Positions 18,335 through 26,210 of a DNA stretch of 64,000 nucleotides are shown in pieces. The notes beneath the pieces were generated by a model that searched no databases, was not told the origin of the DNA, and was given only the letters and a program-made list of their open reading frames with translations. Origin of the DNA: Olsenella sp. KGMB02461 (GTDB lineage: Bacteria; Actinomycetota; Coriobacteriia; Coriobacteriales; Atopobiaceae). A program made the translations under genes and the position numbers. Location: assembly GCF_012584445.1 (NCBI RefSeq), contig NZ_JABAHI010000006.1:124001-188000 (forward strand). Reading direction: 5' to 3'. How positions within the stretch are numbered: the stretch's first letter is position 1; every line of letters starts with the position of its first letter.

Positions 18335-18904
18335 CTACTCCACGCTCACCAGCTCGATCTCGAAGTTCAGGGGCTTCCCTGCCAGCTCCGGGTTGGCGTC
18401 GGCGGTGATAGTGCCGTCATTGATGGCGGTTACCGTGGCAGTGCCGGTAGTCCCGTTGCTGCCGGTGAAGGTCAGGCGGTCCCCTACTTGCAACTGGTCG
18501 CCATCGCGCACATCGGCCTGGGGGATCTCGAAGACCAACGACTCGTCGCGCTCTCCGTAGGCCTCGGAGGGCTCTAGGTGCACGGTCTTTTTCTCCCCTA
18601 CCTTCATGCCCTCGACCGCAGAGTCAAAGCCGCTGATCATCTGACCTGCGCCCACGGTGAACTCCAGAGGAGTGCCGCGGTCGTAAGAACTGTCGAACTT
18701 GGTGCCGTCATCCAGGGTGCCTGTGTAGTGCACCTTGACCTTGTCGCCCTTGGCGGCCTGGGTCTTGGCCTCAGAAGACTCTTGGGCAGCCGCCTCGGAA
18801 GCGTTGTTTTGCTCGGTGGTGGCAGCTTGCCCAGAGCAACCCGTCAGTGCCACAAGAGATGCCAGCGCCAGCGCACAGGCGCAGCGCGCCACAGTGTGAG
18901 TCAT
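18335..18904 (-). CDS. FKBP-type peptidyl-prolyl isomerase lipoprotein
   Basis: A 189-residue exported foldase. Residues 1-22 form a lipoprotein signal ending in the lipobox LTGC with Cys23, followed by a flexible Ala/Ser/Glu linker to about 50. The rest is a SlyD-like FKBP domain (KVHYTGTLDDGTKFDSSYDRG, MISGFDSAVEGMKVGEKKTVHL) with the IF insert. It probably helps fold secreted proteins at the outer membrane face. AGAGGAGG precedes ATG 18904. It lies just downstream of the lct-type operon; a second, cytoplasmic FKBP lies just upstream of that operon. Confidence 0.92.
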   Translation of the reverse strand: MTHTVARCACALALASLVALTGCSGQAATTEQNNASEAAAQESSEAKTQAAKGDKVKVHYTGTLDDGTKFDSSYDRGTPLEFTVGAGQMISGFDSAVEGMKVGEKKTVHLEPSEAYGERDESLVFEIPQADVRDGDQLQVGDRLTFTGSNGTTGTATVTAINDGTITADANPELAGKPLNFEIELVSVE

Positions 18905-19061: not shown

Positions 19062-20270
19062 CTAAGCAGAGTGGGCCGCCGCCTCTTCCAGGAACTTCAC
19101 CCACTCGTCAGCCACCTGGCGGCAGTCTGCCACTGCACCTGCTTGGGCCACAGAGAAGATAGGGGCGTCGGGGTCTTCATTGACCGCGATGACGGTCTTT
19201 GCCCCCGAAATGCCCGCCAAATGCTGGATGGCTCCCGAGACGCCCATAGAGACGAGCACCCGCGGCGCCACGGAGACACCCGTCTGTCCCACCTGGCTCT
19301 CATGGCCCATCCAGCCGGCTTCCACCACCGGGCGGGTGCAGGCCACCTGCCCTCCCAACAGCGCAGCCAAACGCTCCATGGTAGGCAGCGCCTTCTTGTC
19401 GCGGATGCCGCGGCCAACCACCACGAGCACCTCTGCATCGGCGATGGAAGCGCCCGAAGAGGCCGGCTCTTCTGAGAGCACTTGGATGCCTGGCACAGAA
19501 GAAGGCGCCGCTGTCAGATGATAGATGGTGCCGCAACGGCCCTTCTGCGGCTCCGGCCGAGAAAAGACTCCCGGGCGTACTGTGGCCATCTGGGGCCTCG
19601 TAGCAGGGCTTGCGATAGTGGCCAGCAAGTTGCCGCCAAAGGCTGGGCGGGTTTGCAGCAGCAAGCCCTCTTGATCGAGCGCCAACTGGGTGCAGTCAGC
19701 CGTCAGGCCGCAGGAAAGCTCCCGAGCCACCCGCGGCGCCACCTCGCGTCCCAGATCGGTAGCCCCAAAGAGCACCGCTTCGGGCTTGAGCTGTTCGATG
19801 ACCTGGGCCACCGCCTGCCCGATAGCTGCCCCATCGGGGATGGCGAAGGCGGGATCCTTCACCACCAGCACCTCGTCGGCGCCGGCATCTATAAGCGGCG
19901 CATAGCCTCCGGTGCACTGGCATCCCGGCTGCGACCCAGAGACCACCAGCACGCGCAAAGAGCAGCCGCGCTCGTGTGCCAGGTCGCGAGCCGCCCCCAC
20001 CAACTCATAGGCCACTGGCAGCGGCGTTGCGCTCTTATCGGTTTGAGCCACCACCATCATGCCGCTCCACGCGGAGAGGTCGGCAGAGGCGTGGGAAGCC
20101 TCGCGGGAGAGGGCGCCTTTGGGACAGGCATCGATGCACAGGCCGCAGGCTATGCAATTCTCGGTAATGGAGGCGCGGCGGCTCTCCACCTTCACACCGT
20201 CGTTGGCGCAGACGCGCACGCAGAGGCCGCAGCCTATGCACAGATCCTGATCTATCCTAATGGCTGCCAT
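19062..20270 (-). CDS. etfA: Electron transfer flavoprotein alpha subunit with N-terminal ferredoxin domain
   Basis: A 402-residue protein. Residues 1-60 are a two-cluster ferredoxin domain with C11, C14, C17, C21 and C39, C42, C45, C49. The rest is EtfA, ending in the FAD-binding LVSMGVSGAIQHLAGI and NEDPDAPIFSVA segments. The ferredoxin fusion is typical of LctC and CarE, EtfA subunits of electron-bifurcating or -confurcating complexes, not of respiratory ETF. ATG 20270 starts 5 bp after etfB; a much longer upstream extension of the frame is a shadow of etfB. Strong operon context with a lactate dehydrogenase-like flavoprotein. Confidence 0.92.
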   Translation of the reverse strand: MAAIRIDQDLCIGCGLCVRVCANDGVKVESRRASITENCIACGLCIDACPKGALSREASHASADLSAWSGMMVVAQTDKSATPLPVAYELVGAARDLAHERGCSLRVLVVSGSQPGCQCTGGYAPLIDAGADEVLVVKDPAFAIPDGAAIGQAVAQVIEQLKPEAVLFGATDLGREVAPRVARELSCGLTADCTQLALDQEGLLLQTRPAFGGNLLATIASPATRPQMATVRPGVFSRPEPQKGRCGTIYHLTAAPSSVPGIQVLSEEPASSGASIADAEVLVVVGRGIRDKKALPTMERLAALLGGQVACTRPVVEAGWMGHESQVGQTGVSVAPRVLVSMGVSGAIQHLAGISGAKTVIAVNEDPDAPIFSVAQAGAVADCRQVADEWVKFLEEAAAHSA

Positions 20271-20275
20271 GGGAT

Positions 20276-21145
20276 CTACGCCCCCTCTGACTGGTCGACG
20301 ATGGCGCTGAGCTGCTCGGCGATCTGGGCCGGGCTGCCGGCGAGGAGGCGGCAGGCCCCGCTGGTCTCCGGCACGCAGCAGCGCACTACCTGCGTGGGCG
20401 AGCCTTCGAGGCCGCATTGGGCGAGATCGGCGCCCAATTGGGCGGCTCCGCGCACCTCTACCTGGCTCTTTTGGGCTTCGAGCACCCCCGTGACAGAGGG
20501 CATGCGCAGAGCAGCCGCGTCTTTGTCCACGGTCACCACACAGGGAAGCGGCACTCCTACGCGCCTTTTCTCGCCCTCGAAAACCTGGCTTGCCACCAGG
20601 CCTGCCTCTGCAAGCGCGGCACGGGTCATCTGCGGCAAAGGCGCCGGCTCCACCGAGAGGGCACCGGTGACGCAGGGCCAACGGCGGCCTGCCGCCACCT
20701 CGGGGCCGATTTGAGCCGTGTCGCCATCCACCGCCATCTTGCCGCAGAGCACCAGGTCTTGATCGCCCAGCTCGCGAAGCCCCAGCTCCAGCGCATAGCT
20801 GGTGGCCAGGGTGTCGCTGCCGGCAAAGGCACGGTCGGAAAGCAGCAGGGCCCGATTGGCGCCGCGGGCAACGGCGTCGCGCAGCAGATCGGCCGTAGCT
20901 GAGATGCCCATGGAAAGCACCGAGACCACCACCGGCACCCCCTCCCCCTCTAGCTGGGCTTTAAGCTCTAAGGCCAGCTCAAGGGCGGCAGTGTCGTAGG
21001 GGTTGAGCACCGCGGCTCCCCCGTCGCGCACGATGGTGTGGGTCACAGGGTCCATGGCCACCTCGGTGGAGGCCGGGACCGCCTTCATCAACACGGTTAC
21101 CGAGAAGGGCGCGCCTTCCCAAGTCGTCTGCTTGTCAAAGCTCAC
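20276..21145 (-). CDS. etfB: Electron transfer flavoprotein beta subunit, bifurcating type
   Basis: A 289-residue EtfB. The segment CGKMAVDGDTAQIGPEVA (134-151) has the VDGDTAQ.GPE pattern associated with bifurcating EtfB, which binds the NADH-facing FAD; respiratory ETFs differ there. SVTVLMKAVPASTEVAMDP is the normal N-terminal beta strand. The start is GTG 21145 behind AAGGAGG with good spacing; an ATG at 21193 would overlap the preceding gene. Partner of EtfA downstream and the flavoprotein upstream. Confidence 0.92.
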   Translation of the reverse strand: MSFDKQTTWEGAPFSVTVLMKAVPASTEVAMDPVTHTIVRDGGAAVLNPYDTAALELALELKAQLEGEGVPVVVSVLSMGISATADLLRDAVARGANRALLLSDRAFAGSDTLATSYALELGLRELGDQDLVLCGKMAVDGDTAQIGPEVAAGRRWPCVTGALSVEPAPLPQMTRAALAEAGLVASQVFEGEKRRVGVPLPCVVTVDKDAAALRMPSVTGVLEAQKSQVEVRGAAQLGADLAQCGLEGSPTQVVRCCVPETSGACRLLAGSPAQIAEQLSAIVDQSEGA

Positions 21146-21186
21146 GGAATCCTCCTTGGAGGGGCGGACGGGTTCGCAGGACATGG

Positions 21187-22872
21187 CTAACACCCCTTGC
21201 CAGAGACGCCTTGGCGCGCCGCTTCTTCTTGGAGAAGCTCGAGGCTGAAGAGGGTACCCTGGCCAAAGAGCCCCTCGGGATCCAGCGCCAATTTGGTGCG
21301 GGCCATGGCCCGCACGCCCTCAGGGCCATACATGGGCATCAAGAAGTCGCGCTTGATCTTGCCTACGCCATGCTCGGCAGAGACAGCGCCGCCCATGGCA
21401 GAGATCTCTTTGGCCCAAAGCGCCAGCAGGTCTTTGGCTTGATGCCATTGGGCCTCGTTGCGAGGCAGCAGGTTCACATGGAGGTGGTTGTCGCCGATGT
21501 GGCCCCAGGCGGCGCTTTGAAGGCCCGACGCCTGGATGGTGGAGCGATAGAGCTCCATGACCTGGCGCAGCTTGCCCCGAGGCACGCTCATGTCGCTGCC
21601 CACCTTGGTGACCGCCGGGTCTTTGGCACGGTAGCTGTCGATAAGCAGGTTCACTGACTCAGGCACGGCATGGCGGAAGAAGCGCTGGCGCTCGCGGTCG
21701 GCAGCCATGGTGCCCACCCAGCTCAAGTCCGGCTGTGCCCCCACGGATTCCATGGCCTCCGAGATCTTAGCCACCGCCTCAATCATCAGGCCGTGGTCAG
21801 AGGCCGCCAGCTCGCAGTAGACGCAGACGCGCTCCTGGCAGCGCAGTTCCGGCAGCGAGCTGAAGGCTGGGTCCTGCGCGCGTTGGGCTCGCAGGATATC
21901 GAGGGCATCGCCATCAAAGTATTCCAGCGCCACTATGGCGTCTTGCAACACAGAAGTCCCCGCTTCTGAGGCCACGGGTTTCTCGGCAGCGGGAACGTAG
22001 GCAGGCGCCGACGCAGCCTCTTGGAGCAGCTCCACAAAGGAGAGGGCGGCGTCCTCTGCAGAAAAGAAGCAGTTGACGCCCCAGGTAAGGGCGGGCACCG
22101 GCAAAAGGTCGCAGGTAAGCTGGGTGATGACGCCCAGGGTGCCGTCGGAGCCAATTATTAGATCCACGGCGTCCATGGCAGGCGAGGCAAAGTAACCGCT
22201 GGCACATTTGGCCTGAGGCATCTCATAGGAGGGCACGGGGATCTCAAGGCTCGCGCCGCTTTGGGTGGCAAGGGCAAGGATGCCGTCTTGAGCGCGCACC
22301 TGGCCGCGCACAAGGTCGATGACGTCGCCTGCGGCTGTCACCAGACGCAGGCCCGAGATATGGGGGCGCACCGGGCCATAGCGAAAGGAGCGGGCGCCAG
22401 AGGCATTGCAGGCCGCCATGCCTCCTAGACAAGCCGAGGTCTCTGTGGGATCGGTAGGGAAAAACTGCGCCGGCGCTGCCTTGAAGGCTTCCAGGGCATC
22501 CAGGGAGTCTTGGCTCCAGCCGGTGGTATCGAAGCTTTTGCGCTCCAGGTCTCGGCGCAGGTCTTGGAGCACCACGCCCGGCTGCACCTGCACGGAGAAG
22601 CTGCCGTCGCCATGGCTCACGAGCCCTGTGACCCTATTCATGCGGCTGGTGTTGAGCACCGTGCCGCCATAGGGCACCGCGCCGGCGGCCAGCCCCGTGC
22701 GAGCGCCTTGAATGGTGATGGGGCCGCTCGCATCCTGGCGCACCTGGCACACCACCTCGACGACCTCTGCCTCAGAGACAGGAAACGCGATGGCCTGGGC
22801 GGCGCCGTGGGTTCTTGACTCGTCTGCCAGATACCCCGCCAAAGTCTCGTCCATGGGCTTGAGGGCCGCCAT
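21187..22872 (-). CDS. FAD-linked 2-hydroxyacid (D-lactate-type) dehydrogenase
   Basis: A 561-residue GlcD/Dld-like flavoprotein: FAD-binding PCMH domain with QGARTGLAAGAVPYGGTVLN and ACLGGMAACNASGARSFRYG, and a C-terminal cap with GHIGDNHLHVN (457-467) and EHGVGK (500-505) typical of lactate and glycolate dehydrogenases. Next to a bifurcating EtfB and a ferredoxin-fused EtfA it corresponds in role to LctD of Acetobacterium woodii, where lactate oxidation with NAD+ is driven by reduced ferredoxin. It is longer than LctD, and the substrate is inferred. ATG 22872 follows AGGAGG. Three GTTRCCRAG repeats lie upstream. Confidence 0.85.
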   Translation of the reverse strand: MAALKPMDETLAGYLADESRTHGAAQAIAFPVSEAEVVEVVCQVRQDASGPITIQGARTGLAAGAVPYGGTVLNTSRMNRVTGLVSHGDGSFSVQVQPGVVLQDLRRDLERKSFDTTGWSQDSLDALEAFKAAPAQFFPTDPTETSACLGGMAACNASGARSFRYGPVRPHISGLRLVTAAGDVIDLVRGQVRAQDGILALATQSGASLEIPVPSYEMPQAKCASGYFASPAMDAVDLIIGSDGTLGVITQLTCDLLPVPALTWGVNCFFSAEDAALSFVELLQEAASAPAYVPAAEKPVASEAGTSVLQDAIVALEYFDGDALDILRAQRAQDPAFSSLPELRCQERVCVYCELAASDHGLMIEAVAKISEAMESVGAQPDLSWVGTMAADRERQRFFRHAVPESVNLLIDSYRAKDPAVTKVGSDMSVPRGKLRQVMELYRSTIQASGLQSAAWGHIGDNHLHVNLLPRNEAQWHQAKDLLALWAKEISAMGGAVSAEHGVGKIKRDFLMPMYGPEGVRAMARTKLALDPEGLFGQGTLFSLELLQEEAARQGVSGKGC

Positions 22873-22980
22873 AGCCAAACCTCCTGGGTCGCAAGGGTTA
22901 AGGAGGCGGTTGGGCCCCTGCCGCACCGGCGCCAGAGATCCCAGCCCGCCTCATAGTGCTACCTAGCCTAGAGACTCTTG

Positions 22981-23113: not shown

Positions 23114-23147
23114 AAAAAAGGCCGGCCCCCTTCTGGAGACCGGCCCC
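23114..23147 (-). terminator. Intrinsic terminator after cytoplasmic FKBP gene
   Basis: On the - strand GGGGCCGG...CCGGCC forms a strong GC stem with an AGAA-type loop, followed by TTTTTTGTG. Confidence 0.88.
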
Positions 23148-23178: not shown

Positions 23179-23607
23179 CTAGTCTTCTACCTCCACCAGC
23201 TCAAGGTCAAAGTTCAGCGGCTTGCCTGCCAGATCATGGTTGGCGTCAACGGTTACAGCCTCGTCGGTGATCTTGGTGACCGTAGCCGGGATGGGCTGGC
23301 CGGCAGGGCCTTGCAAGAAGATCTTGGTGCCCTCAGAGAGCTGATCCACGTTGGGCACTTGGTCGATGGGGAAATCGATGATGAGCTCAGGGCGCACGTC
23401 GCCGTAGGCCTCAGCGGGCTCCAGATGGATGGTCTTCTTGTCGCCGGGCTCCATATCGACCACCGCGTCGTCGAACCCCTTGATCATCATGCCCGAGCCA
23501 GCCACAAACTCGATGGGCTCGTCGCGATCGTAGGAGCTATCAAACTGCGTACCGTCATCTAGGGTGCCGCGATAATGTACCTTTACCTTTTTGCCTTCAT
23601 TAGACAT
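23179..23607 (-). CDS. FKBP-type peptidyl-prolyl isomerase (SlyD-like)
   Basis: A 142-residue cytoplasmic prolyl isomerase without signal peptide. It begins KVKVHYRGTLDDGTQFDSSYDR, has MMIKGFDDAVVDMEPGDKKTIHLEPAEAYG, then the inserted flap and a C-terminal LVEVED. It lacks the His-rich metal tail of enterobacterial SlyD. AAAGGA precedes the ATG. Single-gene unit with its own terminator. Confidence 0.92.
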   Translation of the reverse strand: MSNEGKKVKVHYRGTLDDGTQFDSSYDRDEPIEFVAGSGMMIKGFDDAVVDMEPGDKKTIHLEPAEAYGDVRPELIIDFPIDQVPNVDQLSEGTKIFLQGPAGQPIPATVTKITDEAVTVDANHDLAGKPLNFDLELVEVED

Positions 23608-25040: not shown

Positions 25041-26210
25041 CTAGAAGGCAAACCCCGAAAGATTGACGATAAAGCCGCAGAGCACCGCCACAAAGAAGAG
25101 CAGGGTTGCAATGCCAAAGTTGGAGCGCATGGGGCGATTGGCCCTAAAGAGCACCAGCAGGCCCACGCCAGCTCCCACTAAAAGCCCGGAAATCATGGCG
25201 CCAGAGCCCAGCGCACCCTGAAGGTAGAGCTCGGAGATGAGCACCGAAGCCGCGCAGTTAGGGACAAGCCCTACCAGCGCAGAATAGAGCACCGCTTGAT
25301 CAGGATGGGCCAAAAGGAAGGCGGCAAAGACGTCCTCGCCCACGCCGTCGATGACGAACTCCAACACCAGCGTGATCACAAAAATGAACAGCGTCACCTG
25401 CGCCGTATGAACGAGGGCGCTCTTCCAAATGGAGCCATGGCCATGGCTATGGCCATGGGCGCAGCAGTGGTCGTGGCCGACAGCCCCATGATCGCAAACG
25501 TGGCCCTGGTGGCCATGGCCGCCCTTCTCGGCAGCCGAGAAGGGCCCTTCGCACTCAGGGTCATGAGCGCATTGGCCCTCAGCCTCTGCCAGATTGCCAT
25601 CGTCCAAATAGACGTCCTTGGCCAAGGCTTCCACCTCATGGTCTCTGCCCTCTTGGGCAGCGCGGCTCTCGCAGAGCTGCCTACAGGCAGCTGAGCGGCC
25701 TGTAGGCTGGGCAGACTCTTGATCCAGCTGGTCGCAGCCGCAATGGTCCTGCTCGCACAGCTCATGGATGCGCAGCGCAGAATGGGTGGGGATATGGAAG
25801 ATGCGCACGGCCAGGTCCACCAGAAGGCCTGCCACCATGCCGACGATCACCTTGAATGCCAGAATGGCGACGATTTGGGCAGCCGGGGCGCCGTTGGCTA
25901 TGAATACGGGCAGCATCTCGTCTGAAGTGGACAGAAACACCGCGATGAGGGTGCCCAGCGTGACCACTCGACCGCTGTAAAGAGTGGCGCCCATGGCCGA
26001 AAAGCCGCACTGGGGCAGCGCGCCCAACAGAGCGCCCAGTATGGGGCCTGCTTTGCCGGCTTTCAAGATAATGCGCTCAGAGAATCCCTGAGCGCTGTGT
26101 TCCAGCCACTCCATGGCGAGATAGGTGACGTAGAGGAACGGCATGAGCACCAGGGTGTCATGCACCGACTCGCCCACTACCTCGCCAATGAACGCGACCA
26201 TGTCTTGCAT
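25041..26210 (-). CDS. Putative heavy-metal permease (ArsP_2-like) with His/Cys-rich loop
   Basis: A 389-residue polytopic membrane protein. About five hydrophobic segments precede, and about five follow, a long central loop (roughly 151-259) with many His and Cys, including HGHQGHVCDHG and HGHSHGHG. The repeated halves LGALPQCGFSAMGATLYSG and LVGLVPNCAASVLISELYLQG are typical of the putative 10-TM metal exporter family. The loop likely binds Zn, Ni, Mn or similar ions; substrate is not known. GAGGT precedes ATG 26210. The next gene upstream on the same strand is 39 bp away. Confidence 0.75.
   Translation of the reverse strand: MQDMVAFIGEVVGESVHDTLVLMPFLYVTYLAMEWLEHSAQGFSERIILKAGKAGPILGALLGALPQCGFSAMGATLYSGRVVTLGTLIAVFLSTSDEMLPVFIANGAPAAQIVAILAFKVIVGMVAGLLVDLAVRIFHIPTHSALRIHELCEQDHCGCDQLDQESAQPTGRSAACRQLCESRAAQEGRDHEVEALAKDVYLDDGNLAEAEGQCAHDPECEGPFSAAEKGGHGHQGHVCDHGAVGHDHCCAHGHSHGHGSIWKSALVHTAQVTLFIFVITLVLEFVIDGVGEDVFAAFLLAHPDQAVLYSALVGLVPNCAASVLISELYLQGALGSGAMISGLLVGAGVGLLVLFRANRPMRSNFGIATLLFFVAVLCGFIVNLSGFAF

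What the first reader, a model, noticed from the sequence alone, without database searches (positions are those of the whole stretch)
19062..22872. Electron-confurcating lactate dehydrogenase operon
An FAD-linked lactate/glycolate-type dehydrogenase, an EtfB with the bifurcating VDGDTAQ.GPE pattern, and an EtfA with a two-cluster ferredoxin domain are encoded together. In Acetobacterium woodii the equivalent LctBCD oxidises lactate with NAD+ driven by reduced ferredoxin. Here the dehydrogenase comes first and is about 90 residues longer. NfnAB in the same window would link ferredoxin, NADH and NADPH pools.
Basis: partly seen in the sequence, partly recalled or inferred. Interest (0 to 1): 0.55.

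Follow-up and report, generated by a model that had tools for sequence, protein, structure and literature searches.

The report
Ferredoxin-coupled hydroxyacid dehydrogenase, probably not lactate
A gut-type anaerobe carries a three-gene enzyme that probably uses ferredoxin to help oxidise a small hydroxy acid; it belongs to a widespread, apparently unstudied branch whose active site looks built for an acid such as 2-hydroxyglutarate or malate rather than lactate.

Summary
The three genes are real, and at the stated coordinates. The EtfAB pair carries every bifurcation residue checked: DGDTAQIGP, RxFxG, SPT, the arginine that contacts the base flavin, and two 4Fe-4S motifs. It is the only ETF pair found in the genome. 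An electron-bifurcating or confurcating complex is therefore well supported by sequence, though not assayed.

The lactate assignment and the equivalence to LctBCD are not supported. The dehydrogenase belongs to a separate long subfamily. It was found in 66 of 396 genomes of the class, and also in Clostridia and Synergistota. The gene order is dehydrogenase-EtfB-EtfA. Its EtfB forms its own clade (36 of 36, SH-aLRT 100), apart from LctB. The metal and catalytic residues of D-2-hydroxyacid dehydrogenases are invariant. The side-chain pocket carries Asn where LctD has Tyr, and Pro where LctD has Leu, as in D-2-hydroxyglutarate dehydrogenases. A lactate permease lies near 0 of 80 such loci but near 9 of 18 LctD-type loci. 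Several Clostridial neighbours handle glutamate, dicarboxylates or 2-hydroxyacyl-CoA.

Best reading: a new branch of ferredoxin-coupled D-2-hydroxyacid dehydrogenases, most likely acting on a polar or dicarboxylic acid such as D-2-hydroxyglutarate or D-malate. The substrate is inferred.

The parts
21187..22872 (-). Long FAD-dependent D-2-hydroxyacid dehydrogenase, 561 aa (first gene)
   Evidence: ORF, Pfam FAD_binding_4 and FAD-oxidase_C, AlphaFold pLDDT 88.8 / pTM 0.89, nearest folds mLDHD Z 32.8, LctD Z 32.2, human D-2-HGDH Z 31.2
22880..22885 (-). Ribosome-binding-site-like AGGAGG before the first gene
   Evidence: sequence
21661..21675 (-). R400-H401-A-V-P404: substrate-carboxylate Arg and the Pro at the Thr390 (D-2-HGDH) / Leu332 (LctD) position
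   Evidence: RHAxPE..N motif in 81 of 81; residue roles from PMC9232219 and PMC7801405
21592..21606 (-). K423-x-G425-x-D427; K423 is proposed, not shown, to face the substrate side chain
   Evidence: motif in 81 of 81
21472..21501 (-). H458...H465-x-N467: two metal-ligand His and the Asn equivalent to D-2-HGDH Asn443 / LctD Tyr386
   Evidence: GH.G..H.H.N in 81 of 81
21370..21375 (-). E500-H501: metal-ligand Glu and catalytic-base His
   Evidence: EHG.GK in 81 of 81
20276..21145 (-). EtfB, 289 aa, probable GTG start with AAGGAGG at 21157-21151
20702..20728 (-). DGDTAQIGP: base (bifurcating) FAD binding motif of EtfB
   Evidence: DGDTAQ.GP in 75 of 75 relatives
19062..20270 (-). EtfA, 402 aa, N-terminal ferredoxin domain with two 4Fe-4S motifs
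   Evidence: two motifs in 65 of 71 relatives
23118..23147 (-). Terminator-like hairpin after the upstream FKBP gene, suggesting the operon is its own unit
   Evidence: 2 found; shuffles mean 2.5, so weak

Best explanation
The operon encodes a dedicated electron-bifurcating/confurcating complex made of an FAD- and metal-dependent D-2-hydroxyacid dehydrogenase and an EtfAB with a two-cluster ferredoxin domain. Proposed working: (1) a D-2-hydroxyacid binds the active-site metal (H458, H465, E500), R400 holds its C1 carboxylate, and H501 takes the hydroxyl proton while hydride goes to the dehydrogenase FAD; (2) electrons pass to the EtfAB shuttle FAD; (3) at the EtfB base FAD they join low-potential electrons from reduced ferredoxin, brought in through the 4Fe-4S domain, and NAD+ is reduced. 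The reverse direction, in which NADH reduces a 2-oxoacid and also ferredoxin, is equally possible chemically. The substrate is most likely a polar or dicarboxylic D-2-hydroxyacid, D-2-hydroxyglutarate or D-malate first, rather than lactate. Shown by sequence: the gene set, order, motifs, separate clade and pocket residues. Inferred: complex formation, electron path, direction, substrate.
For: EtfB carries DGDTAQIGP, RAFAG and SPT; EtfA carries the b-FAD arginine (RPAFGG) and GLTADCT. These are the segments whose mutation lowers or abolishes coupling in A. woodii (PMC9232219, sections 7-9). The motif Gly that PMC12630350 (passages) gives as the bifurcating/canonical discriminator is present. 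Family-wide: DGDTAQ.GP 75 of 75, RPAFGG 71 of 71, two clusters 65 of 71 against 1 of 18 LctC-type. The EtfB clade is 36 of 36 with SH-aLRT 100. It is the only ETF pair found in the genome. Substrate: Asn at the D-2-HGDH Asn443 position and Pro at Thr390 in 52 of 52 long-type members; no Asn among the other 44 rows of that alignment except L176 and L177. PMC7801405 (passages) says Asn443 is hydrophobic in D-LDH and GlcD except yeast DLD2/DLD3, which act best on D-2-hydroxyglutarate and also carry Pro at 390. Lactate permease 0 of 80 long-type loci against 9 of 18 LctD-type. Neighbours among 27 non-Coriobacterial loci: GltS 3, HGD-D dehydratase 3, TRAP DctM 2, CitE and fumarase-like 2. The genome has PFOR (2 matches) and [FeFe]-hydrogenase (3 matches in two ORFs).
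Against: Lys401, essential in human D-2-HGDH, is Gly or Ala here; an invariant Lys sits two residues upstream and was not shown to reach the pocket. Tyr432 is Trp or Phe. The overall fold does not separate the candidates (Z 32.8, 32.2, 31.2). The L096 dehydratase is nearest to HadBC (2-hydroxyisocaproyl-CoA), below cut-off. L123 has an NAD-dependent L-lactate dehydrogenase above cut-off beside it. Neighbour functions differ between loci and none was found to be shared in the Coriobacterial loci examined. The genome holds a lactate permease. No assay exists.
Confidence: 0.5

Rival explanations
1. It is a D-lactate confurcating dehydrogenase working like A. woodii LctBCD, with a rearranged gene order and an enlarged dehydrogenase.
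For: LctD (7qh2_C) is the best PDB sequence match to the dehydrogenase; catalytic and metal residues are the same; the genome has a lactate permease on another contig; human D-2-HGDH has moderate activity on D-lactate (PMC7801405, passages).
Against: Separate EtfB clade; pocket residues differ from LctD in 52 of 52; permease near 0 of 80 loci; the second best PDB match is nearly as good (157.6 against 157.0 bits).
Confidence: 0.25
2. A ferredoxin-coupled dehydrogenase or 2-oxoacid reductase for an amino-acid-derived D-2-hydroxyacid (branched-chain, aromatic or other), feeding a 2-hydroxyacyl-CoA dehydratase in Clostridia; in the reductive direction it would earn reduced ferredoxin.
For: HadBC-like dehydratase directly downstream in L096, HGD-D genes near L119 and L123; several hosts have amino-acid-fermenter names (the physiology is recalled).
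Against: The conserved Asn and Lys suit a charged side chain better than a hydrophobic one; mLDHD, which takes hydrophobic acids, has Ile and Trp there (PMC10589216, passages); dehydratases lie near only 3 of 27 non-Coriobacterial loci and near 0 of 53 Coriobacterial loci by the same tblastn.
Confidence: 0.2
3. EtfAB has lost coupling and acts as a plain electron carrier between the dehydrogenase and another partner, as in Fusobacterium nucleatum.
For: Canonical ETFs do occur beside D-lactate dehydrogenases (PMC12630350, passages).
Against: All bifurcation residues checked are intact here and almost without exception in relatives; no acyl-CoA dehydrogenase was seen beside the operon.
Confidence: 0.05

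Closest known systems
Ldh-EtfAB (LctBCD) of Acetobacterium woodii, PDB 7QH2
   Same: GlcD-type FAD and metal dehydrogenase plus bifurcating EtfAB with a ferredoxin domain; same catalytic His, metal ligands and substrate Arg
   Different: Gene order dehydrogenase-EtfB-EtfA; about 24% identity; separate EtfB clade; two Fe-S motifs instead of one cluster; Asn and Pro in place of Tyr386 and Leu332; no permease nearby
D-2-hydroxyglutarate dehydrogenase (human, PDB 6LPN; yeast DLD2/DLD3)
   Same: Fold (Z 31.2) and the Asn443 equivalent; Pro at 390 as reported for DLD2/DLD3 (PMC7801405 passages)
   Different: Those enzymes are not in a bifurcating EtfAB operon (recalled); Lys401 and Tyr432 are replaced
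CarCDE, caffeyl-CoA reductase-Etf, A. woodii, PDB 6FAH
   Same: EtfA with two Fe-S clusters is the best EtfA match
   Different: Partner is an acyl-CoA dehydrogenase, here a hydroxyacid dehydrogenase; EtfB in another clade
Canonical LDH-ETF of Fusobacterium nucleatum
   Same: D-2-hydroxyacid dehydrogenase encoded with an ETF
   Different: That ETF has Phe in place of the motif Gly and does not bifurcate (PMC12630350 passages); here Gly is kept

Membership tests
Ldh-EtfAB (LctBCD) | FAD dehydrogenase with metal ligands, catalytic His and carboxylate Arg | tested here: met
   R400, H458, H465, E500, H501
Ldh-EtfAB (LctBCD) | EtfB b-FAD motif DGDTAQxGP, RxFxG, SPT | tested here: met
Ldh-EtfAB (LctBCD) | EtfA with N-terminal ferredoxin domain | tested here: met
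   two motifs
Ldh-EtfAB (LctBCD) | EtfB groups with A. woodii LctB | tested here: not met
   own clade, 36 of 36, SH-aLRT 100
Ldh-EtfAB (LctBCD) | Gene order EtfB-EtfA-LDH with lactate permease nearby | tested here: not met
Ldh-EtfAB (LctBCD) | Hydrophobic lactate side-chain pocket (Leu332, Tyr386) | tested here: not met
   P404 and N467 in 52 of 52
Ldh-EtfAB (LctBCD) | Ferredoxin-dependent lactate:NAD+ activity | not testable with these tools
   needs purified protein
D-2-hydroxyglutarate dehydrogenase | Asn443 equivalent | tested here: met
   N467
D-2-hydroxyglutarate dehydrogenase | Lys401 equivalent | tested here: not met
   Gly or Ala at that column; invariant Lys two residues upstream
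D-2-hydroxyglutarate dehydrogenase | Thr390 (or Pro, as in DLD2/3) and Tyr432 | tested here: inconclusive
   Pro present; Tyr432 is Trp or Phe
D-2-hydroxyglutarate dehydrogenase | Activity on D-2-hydroxyglutarate | not testable with these tools
   needs assay
Bifurcating (group 2) EtfAB | Sequence motifs and separation from no-motif ETFs in the tree | tested here: met

The most novel reading that the evidence does not exclude
This is an electron-bifurcating D-2-hydroxyglutarate (or D-malate) dehydrogenase: a branch of EtfAB enzymes that couples 2-oxoglutarate/D-2-hydroxyglutarate to NAD(H) and ferredoxin, shared by Collinsella, Atopobiaceae and amino-acid-fermenting Clostridia. It would tie serine or glutamate metabolism to the ferredoxin pool.
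Probability: 0.33. Interest if true: 0.7.

Novelty: new variant of a known kind. Interest (0 to 1): 0.5.

Why it matters
Operons with a GlcD-type gene next to etfAB are read as lactate utilisation (for example PMC10263058 and PMC6373154, passages). If this large branch acts on another acid, such calls would be wrong for Collinsella and Atopobiaceae, where lactate is usually thought of as a product (PMC10263058 cites proposals of Coriobacteriaceae producing lactate). It would also add a new substrate class to EtfAB electron bifurcation.

Tried and rejected
Fold comparison to choose the substrate: mLDHD, LctD and D-2-HGDH are tied within about 1.6 Z, so it cannot decide. SerC as a co-occurrence marker: full-length SerC in 26 of 26 long-positive and 27 of 34 long-negative Coriobacterial genomes that I chose; too weak and confounded by kinship. 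2-hydroxyglutaryl-CoA dehydratase family (PF06050) in genomes: 27 of 34 chosen genomes have a match, in long-positive and long-negative ones alike; the window genome has 4 matches on another contig, not in this operon. Lactate permease per genome: 20 of 34, not discriminating. RnfC in the window genome: no match (control rings in 12 of 14), so Rnf as the ferredoxin partner was dropped. Shadow ORFs from a greedy gene picker in high-GC loci misled early neighbourhood lists; the counts in this report come from HMM or tblastn hits. Coordinates of the AlphaFold model were not available in the Python box, so the position of K423 was not measured. Literature: surfaced no paper describing this long branch in their listings; that is an absence in those searches only.
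Full report
What is there. Three genes lie on the minus strand: a 561-residue FAD dehydrogenase (22872-21187), EtfB (21145-20276) and EtfA (20270-19062), each with a plausible start; the first two have clear ribosome-binding-like sequences. A terminator-like hairpin ends the upstream FKBP gene at 23147-23118, though such hairpins are no more frequent here than in shuffles. PF01012 finds only these two ETF genes in the 2.19 Mb, 99.91% complete genome, so the ETF looks dedicated to this dehydrogenase.

Bifurcation residues. PMC9232219 (sections 7-9 read) reports that in A. woodii the EtfB segments DGDTAQVGP, RxFxG and SPT, EtfA R205, and the ferredoxin domain are needed for coupling. All have counterparts here. 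Over the 80 kept loci plus the window, DGDTAQ.GP is found in 75 of 75 EtfB found, RPAFGG in 71 of 71 EtfA found, RxFxG in 73 of 75, SPT or its variants in 72 of 75, GLTADCT in 69 of 71, and two C-x2-C-x2-C-x3-C motifs in 65 of 71. The same two-motif pattern is found in 1 of 18 EtfA from the LctD-type loci. PMC12630350 (passages) gives a Gly invariant in bifurcating EtfB; I equate it with the motif Gly, which is kept here. This fits a bifurcating pair with two clusters, as in CarE, which is also the best PDB match of EtfA.

A separate branch. Searching 396 genomes of the class, 106 match at E <= 0.001; I count 66 with a match of 49% identity or more, that is, the long type: 9 in the window's family, 52 in family f3, 3 in f2 and 2 in f5. 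The one genome-contig scan gave 181 relatives, of which 80 were kept: 53 Coriobacterial and 27 others, among them Lachnospiraceae, Oscillospiraceae, Dethiosulfatibacter, Maledivibacter, Acidaminobacter, a Desulfotomaculum MAG and a Synergistaceae genome. The order dehydrogenase-EtfB-EtfA is kept wherever both Etf genes were found next to it. Two Slackia-titled loci (L091, L106), L041, L044, L119 and L123 show the dehydrogenase without an adjacent EtfB. In a quick tree of 73 EtfB rows, after dropping 12 rows (duplicates, short or over-long frames), the 36 long-type rows lie on one side of a branch with SH-aLRT 100, apart from LctB, CarD and the Bcd-like ETFs. In a dehydrogenase tree of 84 rows, with 11 loci left out, the 47 long-type rows are one group with SH-aLRT 93; the program warned of long branches meeting elsewhere in that tree.

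Active site. The profile of 18 relatives aligns to LctD and human D-2-HGDH. In window numbering from ATG 22872, R400, H458, H465, E500 and H501 match LctD R328, H377, H384, E422 and H423. The side-chain pocket differs: LctD L332 is P404 and Y386 is N467; E344 aligns with G425. D-2-HGDH has T390, N443, K401 and Y432 at the matching places. PMC7801405 (passages) states that N443 is hydrophobic in GlcD and D-LDH except yeast DLD2 and DLD3, which prefer D-2-hydroxyglutarate and have Pro at 390. In an alignment of 96 dehydrogenases, all 52 long-type rows have Pro and Asn here with a Lys four before the Asp; the other 44 have Tyr, Thr, Phe, Glu or another residue at the Asn column except L176 and L177, two short enzymes that also lie directly upstream of an EtfB. 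Against this, K401 is replaced by Gly or Ala and Y432 by Trp or Phe. If residues alternate along the strand, K423 is on the same face as G425 and D427 and might reach a terminal carboxylate; this is inference.

Neighbours. tblastn with the window genome's own lactate permease finds none in the 80 long-type loci (mean length 14.4 kb for 27 and 16.0 kb for 53) and one in 9 of 18 LctD-type loci (mean 8.8 kb). Among the 27 non-Coriobacterial loci: GltS sodium/glutamate symporter 3 (the L109 gene passes the TIGR00210 cut-off), HGD-D dehydratase 3, TRAP DctM 2, CitE plus fumarase-like 2, MmgE/PrpD 3, AraC regulator 8, SerA-like 2. Results that point elsewhere: the L096 dehydratase is closest to HadBC, below cut-off, and L123 has an L-lactate dehydrogenase above cut-off.

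Genome context. The window genome has PFOR (2 matches), [FeFe]-hydrogenase (3 matches in two ORFs), no RnfC, one Ldh_1_N protein, five 2-Hacid_dh proteins, one of them SerA-like beside a serC-like gene, a lactate permease and NfnAB in the window. Ferredoxin-coupled chemistry is thus plausible. SerA is known in other bacteria to make D-2-hydroxyglutarate (recalled; compare PMC10025160, abstract as listed, on coupling to serine synthesis), which would give such an enzyme a job; not tested.

Structure. AlphaFold gave pLDDT 88.8 and pTM 0.89. Best matches are mLDHD (Z 32.8), LctD (32.2), a D-lactate dehydrogenase of Porcellio dilatatus (32.0), human D-2-HGDH (31.2) and RPA1076 (30.4): the D-2-hydroxyacid dehydrogenase fold, with no decision on substrate.

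Verdict. Real, widespread and conserved. Bifurcating by sequence. Not a member of the LctBCD branch. Substrate probably not lactate, but unproven. The glutamate review PMC8473912 (passages) names NADH as the reductant in the known 2-hydroxyglutarate pathway, so an EtfAB-linked enzyme for that acid would be new.

Noticed in passing
L053:10350-10900 (Kribbibacterium absianum); L072:10300-10900 (Collinsella ihumii): EtfA has an in-frame TAG just after the ferredoxin domain in the first, and a change of frame between the ferredoxin and ETF domains in the second; either split genes or broken or misassembled ones.
   Followed up: partly
L176/L240 and L177/L241: Short enzymes (468-475 aa) with the same Asn/Lys signature, directly upstream of an EtfB, in clusters whose sequences look like a BCCT transporter, an SDR, an FGGY kinase and a second GlcD-EtfBA set; possibly another polar 2-hydroxyacid route.
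   Followed up: partly
L118:3082-3984 and L126:3021-3926: A conserved 301-residue protein between CitF and fumarase-like genes; the L118 copy has no Pfam (E 1e-5) or NCBIfam (E 1e-20) match.
   Followed up: no
L091, L106 (Slackia), L041, L044: The long dehydrogenase occurs without an adjacent EtfB or EtfA, so it may use another partner there.
   Followed up: no
G000:C12:1236115-1238284 (L143) and C12:1142558-1143619 (L144): 2-hydroxyacyl-CoA dehydratase / double-cubane family genes in the window's genome, outside the window; function not resolved.
   Followed up: partly
window 21931-21999: About 23-residue insert in the cap domain (residues 292-314), gapped in the 17 other aligned relatives and partly of low model confidence.
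   Followed up: no
window 18335-18904 and 23179-23607: Two FKBP-type peptidyl-prolyl isomerase genes flank the operon.
   Followed up: no
window 25041-26210: Permease matching NF037962 arsenic efflux protein with 353 bits (cut-off 100), with a His-rich middle.
   Followed up: no
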